DNA of 64,000 nucleotides from Pezicula radicicola (taxonomy: Eukaryota > Ascomycota > Leotiomycetes > Helotiales > Dermateaceae): positions 290,458-354,457 of the forward strand of contig PDUO01000051.1 in assembly GCA_003008705.1 (NCBI GenBank), given 5' to 3'. Numbering within the stretch: the first letter of the stretch is position 1; every line of letters starts with the position of its first letter. A model generated the notes under the pieces. The model made no database searches. It was not told the DNA's origin and saw only the letters and a list, made by a program, of their open reading frames with translations. Position numbers and translations under genes: made by a program. Shown here piece after piece: positions 37,206 to 46,206 of the stretch.

Positions 37206-38890
37206 TTAAAGTTCTAACTTTGCCCATTGGTTATTAGACAACTCCCGTTCTAGCTTAAAGAAGCCTGGCTGAAATTTTTGAAAGACAGCGTCCGGATCGA
37301 CCACCTGGCGCACAGCTTTTAATCTAGCAAGATTGACCTCTCCATATCCTGGAAATACATCTTGCTCCTCGAAAGCGTGGTTCTGGAAGATATATGGATG
37401 GAGCATATCCATCTTTGCAGCAGTCATGCGGAATCGTCCGATTAATCGCCGCATGAAGTCCCGCATGCAGGATTCACTCCCTTCGTGGCTCCAGTGTAAA
37501 TTGATATTGATCACTTGAATGCGTTAGCAACATCCGCAATCTGCCATCATCTCAGTAACTAACCTATCAATGGATCATGTCGCTCCGATAGCCCAAGTGC
37601 ATTACCACCACGCTTCCTCATGTGGGACATGGCGTTCAGTGTGAGCGGGTTATAAACAATGTATACCTGCAAACTATCCGTATCCCGGATTAGTTCCACT
37701 TCTTCCTGGAATATCCTGGCTAGGGCTATCAACAACTGGGAGTTGCTCTCTACCGTCAGCGACCCGAAGAAATTGAAGAAACCCTCCTGGTTCATGCCGT
37801 CCATCTTTTGTACCATGGCCAGAATCGATCTTTCGTAGATGTTGGTCTGCAGCACCGGGGACTCCTTCCACCTACCATCTTTGCTCGGGCGAGAAATTCT
37901 TTCCGGCAACTCAGGCAATTCGGATGCAACCATGCGCTCTGAGATCACAAAGCGTTGGGTTGGTACATGCCAACCAAATGTGGTCGCTATCTGCCAGACG
38001 TGTGGTGGCATTGTAGCGGTATGCACTTCCAATCGATCGAATACACTGGCAAGATCCTCCATGCTAAAGAGTTGAAACGTGTACCACCTGGGTGGGTCTT
38101 GGAAGGTTTCGATGGTGACCTGGGTTACAATCCCAAAGTTGTTGCCGCCGCCTTTCAAGGCCCAGAAGAGGTCCGAGTTGATACTCTCGCTGGCTTTCGC
38201 TATGGTACTGTTCGCCAGTACAAGCTCAAATTCGGTTACGGCGTCACAAGCCCAGCCATAACGTTCGGGAAAAAAGGAGATTCCGCCTGTAGTCTGTCAG
38301 TATCGGAGTCTACAGCTCAGTCTTAATGGAGTTTCTGGCCTACCACCTAAGACTGAACCAACCACACCTGTGAGACTGTTTCGAGTGCCTATGGCTGACA
38401 TATTCAAAGGCTGAAGTGTATGATAGACATCAGCCCAAAGGCTCCCGGCACCCACACTAAGCTGTGAGTTGACTCCATCAATAAAAGCGATATCCTTCAT
38501 CCTTCGCATGTCAATAGTAACACCTTGATCCGCATTCGAAGCGCCTCTAAACGGCGATGTTCCACCGCCGAGTACCGCAAAGTGACACTTGTATTGGCGT
38601 ATGGCTGACAAAACTTGTGCAACATCCTGGGAGTGTCTCGGCTCTACTCTACAGGATGGCTGCATCTTAGCCTGGAACTTGGACCATAGTGGTACTGCGG
38701 CTTCCGAACCGGAGAAATAGATATTTGGCAGAGTCCGGGAGAGACTGTCACACTACTTCATAAGTCAACTTATTTGCAACTTGCCAATCAATTGCATATT
38801 GAGTAGAAGGCGTACTGCAAGCTCACACGGTTGAAGTGTTTGACCGAAGGCAGCTAAGAGGCCAATTATGTAAATTGCGTTGAAAGACAT
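37206..38890 (-). CDS. Secreted FAD-linked oxidoreductase (PCMH/berberine-bridge type)
   Basis: Four exons on the minus strand, 38890-38829, 38744-38344, 38286-37564 and 37513-37206, sum to 1494 nt and 497 residues. A signal peptide is visible (MSFNAIYIIGLLAAFGQTL). The PCMH FAD domain follows: VEPRHSQDVAQVLSAI, LGGGTSPFRGASN, VTIDMRRM, SVGAGSLWADVY, and SVLGGGISFFPERYGWACD across an intron. The His that often anchors FAD covalently in RGGGH-type loops is replaced by Thr. C-terminal substrate and berberine-bridge segments are present, ending with the FPGYGEVNLARL loop. Such enzymes oxidise amines, alcohols or sugars extracellularly or in the secretory path. In fungal metabolite clusters they often tailor peptides or polyketides. 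It heads the UstYa-type cluster. Confidence 0.9.
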
Positions 38891-39244
38891 TGTGTTGAGT
38901 GTTGATCGTGACCACACAGCAGTTCTGTTGGTGGCAAGAGCACGGTGTGGGCGAGACCTATCTTATATAGTTGCTGAACGGTTTTCAATTCACCCGCATC
39001 GCCGGTTGTAATATCTAAGGTAGGCTTGGCCAATGAGGCACCAATATGAATTTACAGAAGCCTGTAGTAGAGCCTAGTTCAAGGGAGCACAATTTTGGGC
39101 CAGCGATTGAGGTATCAGGTTTTGATATGCCAATACTCTATCGAAAAATGAGAGCCGTTTACAACACAAAGACTAATCATAACCCCTTCTCCCAACTCCT
39201 GGCCTACGTCCCTCTCCCACTCTGGCCTCTAAGCCTGAATGCAT

Positions 39245-39491
39245 CTAGCAGCCGGTCTGGTACCAAGCATCAGCATCAATATCCCTGATCTTTTTGCAAG
39301 CATCGGCTACGTCGGCAGTATCTGGAAGAGCCTCCCGCACGCTGATCTCTGTAGTGCACGATATTGTAAGTCATTCTATGCCTCTCATAAAGAGTCAAGT
39401 CCGACTCACCCTTGACTGGCAATGATGGAATGGCTATGGCCAAAGCAGCAGCGGCAAAGCCGAGAGCAAGAATGATCTTGGAGAAATACAT
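39245..39491 (-). CDS. Candidate RiPP precursor: 61-residue secreted peptide
   Basis: Two exons on the minus strand, 39491-39410 and 39348-39245, join in frame across a 61-nt intron (GTGAGT donor, CTACAG acceptor). Residues 1-20 form a clear signal peptide (MYFSKIILALGF, then Ala-rich). The mature part is about 40 residues, with a dibasic KK followed by IRDIDADAWYQTGC at the extreme C-terminus. A kexin-type dibasic site, then acidic-Ala dipeptides like those trimmed by STE13-type peptidases, then a short aromatic/Cys tail is how fungal secreted peptide precursors are built. Only one candidate core copy exists, unlike the repeats of ustiloxin-type precursors. Its location between an oxidoreductase and UstYa genes is the main reason for the call. 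It could instead be an ordinary small secreted protein. Confidence 0.6.
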
Positions 39492-39701
39492 ATTCTTTGG
39501 TGAAATGGCTGTAGACGGTTTATATCTGATATAGATCGTGCGGTTCCGAACAAGGACTTACACGATAAAGGTAACTGTGTAGGATTGGGGTATCGGCCGA
39601 TGACGTCTTGAATCTGATTTGTGATATTACAATTCCAATCTTGCAATAAGGAGGTACAGGCCTTACATATAAATCGACTCGAATACAATCAGACAGCAGT
39701 C

Positions 39702-44314: not shown

Positions 44315-45237
44315 ATGCCTTTGCATTTAAAAGCGCGCTGGAATGCTTACACCGAGCCATGGCTACCTCTGTCATATGCGTACTGGTGTATGGGATGAGA
44401 ACCCTCGTGTACTGATATAGCTAACCAAGACTTACAGACCTGATCCAGAATCTCTCAAGTGGTCTGCGTGGAATGCGTAGCCGCGCGTTCGCCACATGGT
44501 ATTCCACTCTAGGTTTGTCAAACTCGAATCCCGTTGGTGGTGCTGTGCCGTAGAGTTAATTATATTGGCAGGTCACCATTTCGCTGGGTTCGAGGCAGCA
44601 TGGACACCGGTGCCGCGCTTGGTAGGAATGGCAACAGGGAGAGTTCTTGAACTTGGCCCAGGTTCTGGAAATCAGCTTCCTCGATTTGATTGTACTGGTA
44701 CTACCCACATCTACGGTATTGAGCCTAACGAGCAGCTATTCAATCTGCTACGCGATGAGATAGTTCAACAGCATGGCCTTGGCGAAATTTACGTTCCCAT
44801 AAACGCCGCTCTTGAGGATGACAAGGTTTTGGATTCTTGGGGTATTGAGACTGGAAGTATCGACACAGTTGTGTGCATGCAAGTCCTGTGCTCGGTTTCG
44901 GATGTGCCCAGAGCTGCAAAGCAAATTCATCGGCTGCTCAAGCCAGGTGGACAGCTATTGTTCTGGGAGCATCAGGCTAGCAACGATACAGTGACGAGAC
45001 TGGTTCAGAGTGAGCGGACTAGAAACCCTCTGAATTTCCCCATTGAATGCAAGCTTACCGATTACAGGATGCTGGAACGTGATCTGGGCCCCAGTCATTG
45101 GTGGTTGTCACCTTAGTCGCGACATTGAACAGGCATTGGCGGGAGCTGGAAATTGGGAAATCGCGGAACTGGGCCACGACGATAACCAGCCGTGGCACTT
45201 GATGCCGAGAGTTTGGGGACGGTTCATCAAGTTGTAG
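44315..45237 (+). CDS. SAM-dependent methyltransferase (METTL7-like), cluster tailoring enzyme
   Basis: Four exons, 44315-44387, 44438-44512, 44572-45009 and 45068-45237, sum to 756 nt and 251 residues with all phases matching. A short N-terminal hydrophobic segment precedes LIQNLSSGLRGMRSRAFATW. SAM motif I is VLELGPGSGNQL, the acidic post-I residue is in IYGIEPN, and motif IV region is VVCMQVLCSVSD. The tail has LKPGGQLLFWEHQ and, after the last intron, WNVIWAPVIGGCHLSRD, hallmarks of fungal METTL7-like enzymes. Without that last intron the frame appears truncated. The gene is intact. N- or O-methylation of a peptide would fit, by analogy with the methyltransferase of ustiloxin-type clusters. 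Confidence 0.88.
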
Positions 45238-45395
45238 GTCTGCAATTTGTTTTGGTATGGTTGCGAGTTGTTGTGATATACTTACCTACGTTACGGTAAC
45301 TACTTTGTGATACAAACGGCCATTGGACTGTAGGACGAATAAACTATAGAATAATTCCTCATATCCTACGAACTTGCATTGTAGAATACGAAACT

Positions 45396-46206
45396 TTAGG
45401 ATATCCGCTTCTCCTTGAAAAGTTGGTACAATGGTGAGGGGTGCTTGCACTGCCTGACATCACCTGCTCCGTCGATAAATGGAGACGAACCGTTCCAAAG
45501 TCGCTGCCCCTCAATCTGACCGTCAGCTTTGCATAGCACCATCTGTATACCAATTCCCATGTTAGCAAATAACGTTTACAAGGTGAGAAGAGGAGGCTCC
45601 AATCTACAAGCATGAGCCGTCTCTTACCTGGCGCAAGTAATACAAGCAGTGAGGCCAGTGCTTATCCTCATTGAAGTCAAATGCGACTTTTTTGCCTTCG
45701 TACGCATTTTGTAGTGCCGTTCGAAGAGAAACAAGGCAGTGTAGCTAGTGGAACCTGTATATTCTGTAAGTACAGGACAATCTCCTGTAATTATAGAATT
45801 GCTCTATTGGATGTAAGTCCACTGACATGCTGATGGCGCCAATTTCTTCGACATCGCCCCGTTCATTCCTTGAAACGGCTATCACGCCAGCCTTTCTGGT
45901 TGCGGGATCTTCCCAAAGAAAGTCGTACTCGTGATCTAAGGTCATATACTTTTCGTTGCTTCCATACGATCTTTGCACAAATGAGTCATCGTGGCTATCT
46001 ACACTCGAGCTCCCTGCCATGTGCCACACGAGAAGCAATATCTGGAGCACGAGCAAGCCAATGTTGACGACCGAGAGGCGGCAAAGGCCTGTAAAATGCT
46101 TTCCATTGCGAGCCTCATGGACGGATGTCTGCGGTGATAAGTCGTCCATCTGGAGCGGCTCTCGGGAGTCGTTGTGGTCCTGCGATGACACATGTTTGTA
46201 TGACAT
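45396..46206 (-). pseudogene. UstYa-like (DUF3328) gene with stop in HxxHC motif
   Basis: Exon 1 starts at 46206: a hydrophilic N-terminus, a membrane helix (VVNIGLLVLQILLLVWHM), then VEEIGAIS. The next exon (45754-45628) reads F-H-stop-L-H-C, so a TAG replaces the second position of the first HxxHC, consistent with a CAG-to-TAG C-to-T change. It continues LVSLRTALQN to a second, intact motif, HWPHC. The last exon (45542-45396) is in phase and encodes VLCKADGQI, then CKHPSPLYQLFKEKR. The join between exons 1 and 2 also lacks a matching phase with the visible GT-AG signals. The gene is therefore most likely dead. Its sequence elsewhere is well preserved, so inactivation looks recent. Confidence 0.75.

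What the first reader, a model, noticed from the sequence alone, without database searches (positions are those of the whole stretch)
37206..46206. Putative dikaritin-type RiPP cluster with four UstYa genes
Within 9 kb lie a secreted PCMH-type FAD oxidoreductase, a 61-residue secreted peptide, four UstYa/DUF3328 genes and an intact SAM methyltransferase. Seen directly: HxxHC motifs, signal peptides and the SAM motif. Established: UstYa proteins and methyltransferases tailor ribosomal peptides in ustiloxin and related clusters. Inference: this locus makes, or made, a cyclised methylated peptide. No tyrosinase or FMO of the ustiloxin type is seen, so the chemistry would differ from known members.
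Basis: partly seen in the sequence, partly recalled or inferred. Interest (0 to 1): 0.9.

Follow-up and report, generated by a model that had tools for sequence, protein, structure and literature searches.

The report
Decaying fungal cyclic-peptide gene cluster
A short stretch of a fungal genome holds what looks like a partly broken gene set for making a small modified peptide, with a possible single-copy peptide template of an unusual form.

Summary
The genes described are there, but the locus is worn. FAD oxidase (PF01565), UstYa1 (PF11807, both HxxHC motifs) and SAM methyltransferase are intact. Of four UstYa loci one is intact: UstYa2 lacks a canonical last splice acceptor and a motif His; UstYa3 ends at a dispersed ~245-bp repeat; UstYa4 has a stop inside its first motif. 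A nearby MFS gene looks truncated. The 61-residue peptide is a plausible secreted product but an orphan (no relative in 5.8 billion proteins). It lacks the repeated Kex2-cut cores of ustiloxin-type precursors, and no repeated precursor lies in the locus by a test that finds them at two of three other UstYa loci of this genome. It ends in WYQTGC, resembling the asperipin-2a core FYYTGY (a pattern chosen after the fact). UstYa1 and methyltransferase relatives appear to share a contig in two of five cases. No scored ketosynthase or condensation match lies on this contig; a polyketide-synthase relic does. An intact second beta-tubulin gene 4 kb away invites a self-resistance reading, but other copied housekeeping pieces lie nearby. 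Best reading: remains of a dikaritin-like locus with a candidate single-core precursor, its full product probably no longer made.

The parts
37206..38890 (-). FAD-linked (PCMH-type) oxidoreductase with hydrophobic N-terminus, 3 introns, intact by my model
   Evidence: splice model (open, 497 aa); PF01565 E 7.7e-24
39245..39491 (-). candidate precursor: 61-aa secreted peptide, one intron 39349-39409, ends in WYQTGC
   Evidence: model; no family or homologue; signal-like start rare in random sequence; C-terminal pattern found nowhere else in the window
40242..41165 (+). UstYa1, intact, 252 aa, 3 introns, HQIHC and HTDHC motifs
   Evidence: model; PF11807 E 3.1e-38; motif His and Cys columns invariant in UstYa1 and 4 relatives
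41496..42499 (-). UstYa2, damaged: last intron without canonical acceptor, second motif lacks its second His
   Evidence: frames; exon matches; last exon PF11807 E 3.8e-16
43081..43794 (+). UstYa3, truncated: conserved C-terminal part missing
   Evidence: frames; weak PF11807 exon match (24.6 bits, under cut-off); adjoining repeat
43795..44041 (.). dispersed repeat adjoining the broken end of UstYa3
   Evidence: 50 matching rows in own genome incl. itself; the other 49 rows lie within query bases 1-252
44315..45237 (+). class I SAM methyltransferase, 251 aa, 3 introns, intact
   Evidence: model; PF13489/PF08241; 240 homologues
45360..46206 (-). UstYa4, broken: in-frame stop inside the first HxxHC motif
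   Evidence: frames; PF11807 match 35 bits with 1 TAG; first exon alone has no Pfam match
34180..35950 (+). MFS-type transporter, 3' part missing (possible member)
   Evidence: frames; weak MFS_1 matches under cut-off
31304..33156 (-). second beta-tubulin gene, intact, 446 aa, 6 introns (possible self-resistance gene, membership unproven)
46971..47222 (-). relic resembling the enoyl-reductase domain of a reducing polyketide synthase (neighbour)
   Evidence: Pfam ADH_zinc_N only under cut-off

Best explanation
This is the remains of a UstYa (dikaritin-type) ribosomal-peptide locus. The 61-residue peptide is taken into the secretory pathway by its signal sequence (inferred). Its C-terminal stretch, probably WYQTGC or the 14 residues after the KK pair, is the core (inferred). 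The membrane-anchored UstYa1 would oxidatively link the core Tyr to the beta-carbon of a nearby residue, perhaps Thr at +2, as DUF3328 proteins are held to do in ustiloxin (Tyr to Ile at +2) and asperipin-2a (Tyr to beta-carbons) (inferred from the family). The FAD oxidase would add another oxidation, and the methyltransferase could methylate the trimmed N-terminus as PhomM does (inferred). Since UstYa2, UstYa3, UstYa4 and the MFS gene look damaged (shown in sequence), the original product is probably not made in this strain; at most a simpler one is.
For: Four UstYa loci, FAD oxidase and methyltransferase packed in 9 kb. UstYa1 intact, motif His and Cys invariant in UstYa1 and 4 relatives. 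Peptide gene 0.75 kb from UstYa1, with a signal-like start matched in 2 of 30 random windows. C-terminal WYQTGC against asperipin core FYYTGY (passage seen in PMC6514808): pattern [FWY]Y.TG in 2.5e-5 of shuffles of the 42-residue part, expected 3e-4 from composition, 0 in 26,519 residues of 125 fetched proteins. Two of 3 other UstYa loci fetched from this genome have a small secreted ORF with a repeated segment, so secreted precursors beside UstYa genes occur here. UstYa1 and methyltransferase relatives share contig length and source or organism twice: 22,301 (lgn) and 161,493 (Echria macrotheca). 0 of 146 ketosynthase and 0 of 83 condensation matches lie on contig C99 (131 of 149 and 79 of 150 candidates were scored).
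Against: No homologue of the peptide, so no conservation supports it as a gene. It lacks repeated cores and KR/RR sites, unlike the two control loci. The core pattern and the signal filter were chosen with the peptide in view, and secreted-like starts are not rare (27 in the window at a looser cut-off). Only 2 of the 120 listed methyltransferase relatives share a contig length with a UstYa1 relative, and the Echria pair may lie far apart on a 161-kb contig. A PKS relic adjoins. No expression or metabolite data.
Confidence: 0.5

Rival explanations
1. The UstYa, FAD and methyltransferase genes once tailored a polyketide or non-ribosomal peptide whose synthase has been lost here; the peptide is unrelated.
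For: A PKS enoyl-reductase relic lies at 46971-47222 behind an AT-rich stretch. UstYa proteins also work in cyclochlorotine clusters (text seen in PMC12048977; that its backbone is NRPS-made is recalled).
Against: No ketosynthase or condensation match on C99 among those scored (not all candidates were scored). Only a short ER-like piece remains. The peptide sits between the FAD and UstYa1 genes.
Confidence: 0.25
2. The 61-aa ORF is an ordinary small secreted protein or not a gene at all, and the cluster's true precursor is lost or elsewhere.
For: Orphan in the searches made; no repeats; just two Cys. Chance signal-like starts do occur (2 of 30; 27 looser ones in the window).
Against: Two-exon model with GT-AG intron and in-frame join; position; asperipin-like C-terminus. 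No repeat-type precursor in the locus instead.
Confidence: 0.2
3. The locus is fully functional and the apparent breaks are assembly errors or wrong gene models.
For: Gene models are by hand; GC-AG introns seem to be used in the locus (my reading).
Against: UstYa3 ends at a repeat found at many other places; UstYa4 has an in-frame stop in a defining motif.
Confidence: 0.05

Closest known systems
Asperipin-2a cluster (aprA, aprY, aprT, aprR; Aspergillus flavus)
   Same: UstYa-type enzyme, secreted precursor, transporter nearby; core FYYTGY against C-terminal WYQTGC (aromatic, Tyr, Thr and Gly in register) (PMC6514808 passages)
   Different: The asperipin precursor carries repeated cores with Kex2 sites (PMC7329392 passages); here one copy, no KR/RR; no aprR-type reductase seen; extra FAD oxidase, methyltransferase and three more UstYa loci
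Ustiloxin B / phomopsin A clusters
   Same: Several UstYa genes and a methyltransferase; Tyr to beta-carbon linkage at +2 is proposed here by analogy
   Different: No tyrosinase found among ORFs scanned; no repeated YxIx cores; flavin enzyme is PCMH-type, not the ustiloxin FMO; no S41 peptidase among ORFs scanned
Lichen UstY clans R1/R2 (PMC12048977)
   Same: UstYa loci without repeated precursors; the authors name a single core peptide as one possibility (passages)
   Different: No precursor identified there in the passages seen; here a candidate is named
Cyclochlorotine UstYa proteins
   Same: UstYa family; the UniRef name of the closest UstYa1 relative begins 'Cyclochlorotine biosynthesi' (truncated)
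   Different: Their substrate is made by an NRPS (recalled); no condensation match on this contig among those scored

Membership tests
Dikaritin (UstYa-RiPP) cluster | DUF3328/UstYa protein with two HxxHC motifs | tested here: met
   UstYa1: PF11807 E 3.1e-38, HQIHC and HTDHC
Dikaritin (UstYa-RiPP) cluster | multiple DUF3328 genes | tested here: inconclusive
   Four loci by PF11807 (UstYa3 just under cut-off), only one intact
Dikaritin (UstYa-RiPP) cluster | secreted precursor with repeated cores cut at Kex2 (KR) sites | tested here: not met
   Peptide has one possible core and no KR/RR. 0 of 27 secreted-like starts in the window have a repeated 7-mer within 700 bases, and 0 1-kb tiles in 34-48.7 kb hold a repeated 8-mer, by a test that finds the repeats in L047 and L048. 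An earlier, stricter script missed those controls and is not relied on
Dikaritin (UstYa-RiPP) cluster | methyltransferase in the cluster | tested here: met
   PF13489/PF08241, intact; kinship to UstM/PhomM not tested
Dikaritin (UstYa-RiPP) cluster | tyrosinase (ustiloxin/phomopsin; the asperipin gene list has none) | tested here: inconclusive
   None in 30 flanking ORF pieces or 5 gene models; not every ORF was scanned
Dikaritin (UstYa-RiPP) cluster | transporter or peptidase | tested here: inconclusive
   MFS fragments present but the gene looks truncated; no peptidase among ORFs scanned
Dikaritin (UstYa-RiPP) cluster | cyclised product derived from the precursor | not testable with these tools
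   needs metabolomics
PKS/NRPS cluster | core synthase gene | tested here: not met
   0 of 146 KS and 0 of 83 condensation matches on C99 (131 of 149 and 79 of 150 first-look candidates scored); only an ER relic
Self-resistance target gene (tubulin) | extra copy of the target in or beside the cluster | tested here: met
   One of two close beta-tubulin matches in the genome (93%; the rest 48% or less), 4 kb from the FAD gene
Self-resistance target gene (tubulin) | changed drug-site residues giving insensitivity | tested here: inconclusive
   M212T and N219S fall at structure positions 214/221 (vinca-site lists), but 212, 218 and 219 are only 3 of 34 differences; function untested

The most novel reading that the evidence does not exclude
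The locus is a single-core, Kex2-independent relative of the asperipin/ustiloxin class whose product acted on tubulin, and the intact, long-diverged second beta-tubulin gene beside the transporter was its built-in self-resistance copy; the biosynthetic genes are decaying while the resistance copy stays under purifying selection.
Probability: 0.08. Interest if true: 0.8.

Novelty: new variant of a known kind. Interest (0 to 1): 0.42.

Why it matters
Searches for fungal UstYa peptides lean on repeated, Kex2-flanked cores. A precursor with one C-terminal core would be missed by those searches and could explain UstYa clusters in which no precursor has been found, such as the lichen clans of PMC12048977. 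A target-gene copy beside such a locus would also let its target be predicted from sequence.

Tried and rejected
Tried without yield: peptide against 5.8 billion proteins (2 candidates, none scored), Pfam and PDB and NCBIfam (one row, E 0.99, noise); a solved UstYa structure (three chance rows); a DAWYxxGC DNA pattern in the genome (one match, the peptide itself); an aromatic-Tyr-x-[TIV]-[GP] end around three other UstYa loci (one match, in L048, with a stop just before it). A search of 35.9-37.2 kb for a repeat that could have cut the MFS gene found only itself.

Considered and lowered: tubulin as self-resistance. The gene is intact, 413 of 446 aligned residues as in the other copy plus one gap, 79% identical in DNA over the first 431 codons, 231 of 431 third positions changed in mixed directions with C-to-T commonest (the dS formula failed because synonymous differences were saturated). 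That argues for old divergence under purifying selection, not recent copying. Its RIP indices (0.94/1.01 against 0.56/1.15 in the other copy) lie in the range usually taken as RIP-like (thresholds recalled), so some of the divergence may be mutational decay of repeats. The window also holds an extra PSST exon (19627-20010; 82% identical to two others) and an N-myristoyltransferase C-terminal fragment (28159-28632), so copied housekeeping genes near here are not specific to tubulin. Set aside: NRPS origin, as no scored condensation match lies on C99.
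Full report
The window lies on contig C99 of a 61.04-Mb, 152-contig genome. I read it as a filamentous ascomycete from its introns, its UstYa genes and its best relatives; no name was available.

Gene content. Frame displays and splice models give an FAD-linked oxidoreductase (37206-38890, minus; PF01565, E 7.7e-24), a 61-residue two-exon peptide (39245-39491, minus), UstYa1 (40242-41165, plus; PF11807, E 3.1e-38) and a SAM methyltransferase (44315-45237, plus; PF13489, E 1.8e-16). 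All four are open and spliced in frame by these hand models. Three more UstYa loci are matched in exons by PF11807 (the UstYa3 row, 24.6 bits, is just under the cut-off; the first exon of UstYa4 alone has no match).

Damage. UstYa2 keeps HELHC, but its last intron has no canonical acceptor in frame and the second motif lacks its second histidine. UstYa3 keeps two HSLHC motifs but stops soon after the second, next to a stretch of about 245 bases that recurs in the genome (50 matching rows including itself, 85-91% identity for the best six others). UstYa4 has an in-frame stop inside its first motif. The MFS gene at 34180 reads well through several exons and then ends early (weak MFS matches under cut-off). 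So one of four UstYa loci is intact. GC is 0.47-0.51 across the MFS, FAD, peptide, UstYa and methyltransferase genes.

The peptide. Its start looks like a signal peptide; a start as hydrophobic occurred in 2 of 30 random windows with the same dinucleotide transitions. At a looser cut-off the window has 27 secreted-like starts, so the start alone proves little. The peptide has no relative in the 5.8-billion-protein collection (2 candidates shared words, none scored), none in Pfam or the PDB, only a noise row in NCBIfam (E 0.99), and no second copy found in its genome. It has no repeated core and no KR or RR pair; a KK pair precedes the last 14 residues. The last six residues, WYQTGC, match FYYTGY, the asperipin-2a core (passage seen in PMC6514808), at Tyr, Thr and Gly with an aromatic first. 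In shuffles of the 42 residues behind the signal this pattern arises at 2.5e-5 (3e-4 expected from general composition), and it is absent from 125 fetched proteins. The pattern was chosen after the fact, so this is suggestive only. A paper on Kex2-processed repeat proteins states that Tyr is mandatory for DUF3328 cyclisation and that ustiloxins and phomopsin are cyclised between Tyr and the Ile two residues on (PMC7329392 passages); here Thr, also beta-branched, stands two residues on.

Control inside the same genome. Of 20 stretches around other UstYa loci that I asked for, I obtained three. Two of the three hold a small secreted ORF with repeats: on C15 a 55-residue peptide with AWADDFGTVT twice and a KR between the copies; on C1 a secreted start followed by four copies of PGVSLAG...VEKRT, 112 bases apart and spread over three frames, probably separate exons. 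The third (C91) has secreted-like starts without repeats. A test that finds both repeat cases gives 0 of 27 secreted-like starts in the window and 0 repeat tiles in 34-48.7 kb; my earlier KR-repeat script had missed both controls and is not used. So repeat-type precursors do stand beside UstYa genes in this genome, and this locus holds none; the 61-residue peptide, with one core, is the remaining candidate.

Co-occurrence elsewhere. UstYa1 has 5 relatives: Talaromyces islandicus 63%, an unnamed 22,301-base contig 71% over 63% of the query, Echria macrotheca 65%, Rhypophila 48% and a short metagenome piece 82% over 28%. The methyltransferase has 240, of which 120 were listed. So 2 of 5 UstYa1 relatives appear linked with a methyltransferase relative; contig names were not shown, so this rests on length and source. 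Other listed methyltransferase relatives, such as Phlyctema vagabunda (75%) and Xylogone (76%), have no UstYa1 hit from the same organism; that search reaches only relatives sharing exact words. In the own genome the next methyltransferase is 42% identical, other FAD-oxidase matches are 60% or less and UstYa1 matches 40% or less.

Synthase test. None of 146 ketosynthase matches and none of 83 condensation matches in the genome lies on C99 (131 of 149 and 79 of 150 first-look candidates were scored). A piece at 46971-47222 resembles polyketide-synthase enoyl reductases (best PDB rows are polyketide synthases, E about 1e-10; Pfam only a zinc-dehydrogenase row under cut-off). This keeps a lost-synthase origin open.

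Tubulin. The window holds an intact beta-tubulin gene, one of two close beta-tubulins in the genome at 93% identity to each other; further tubulin matches are 48% or less. It differs from the other copy at 34 places (33 substitutions and a gap), among them M212T, N218S, N219S and C239S. In the numbering used for crystal structures, shifted by two here, 212 and 219 correspond to 214 and 221, both listed near vinca-site ligands in a docking study (PMC3790769 passages; Pro222, Tyr224 and Gly225 in PMC4982639 passages). Phomopsins and ustiloxins act on tubulin (PMC6514808 and PMC7329392 passages). The residues vary among tubulins (the best PDB rows have Phe and Thr there). No enrichment of changes at the site was shown, and other copied housekeeping pieces lie nearby, so I give this reading low odds. 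Literature searches on self-resistance, tubulin and UstYa listed 30 of 75 and 20 of 37 papers, none of which shows such a case in its title or the start of its abstract; the library is open-licence papers only and most were not opened.

Verdict. A worn UstYa-type locus with a plausible but unproven single-core precursor: a new variant of a known kind, of moderate interest. What would settle it is the gene content of the 22,301-base contig and a peptide-gene deletion.

Noticed in passing
window 19627-20010 (-): Extra copy of the complex I PSST (Oxidored_q6) exon, 82% identical to two others in the genome; a continuation in another frame follows at about 19666.
   Followed up: partly
window 28159-28632 (+): C-terminal fragment of N-myristoyltransferase; the N-terminal part was not seen upstream. 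With PSST and tubulin this makes three copied housekeeping genes or pieces within 14 kb; whether NMT has another copy in the genome was not tested.
   Followed up: partly
own genome contig C83, about 110-251 kb: Single open frames of 13,087 and 10,257 residues packed with NRPS condensation domains, peptaibol-synthetase-like (my guess); further long ones on C98 (7,623 aa) and C66 (7,304 aa).
   Followed up: no
L048 (C15, about 69058 down) and L047 (C1, about 1352568 down): Candidate repeat-type UstYa precursors: AWADDFGTVT twice in a 55-aa secreted ORF; and PGVSLAG...VEKRT four times at 112-base spacing in three frames.
   Followed up: partly
window 61001-64000: Contig ends in a block of 12-22% GC with strongly shifted RIP indices; a similar block lies at 46300-46970.
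   Followed up: no
window 22443-23081 (-): Repeat-rich PAN-domain protein with TTQQGA- and NTGAN-type repeats.
   Followed up: no
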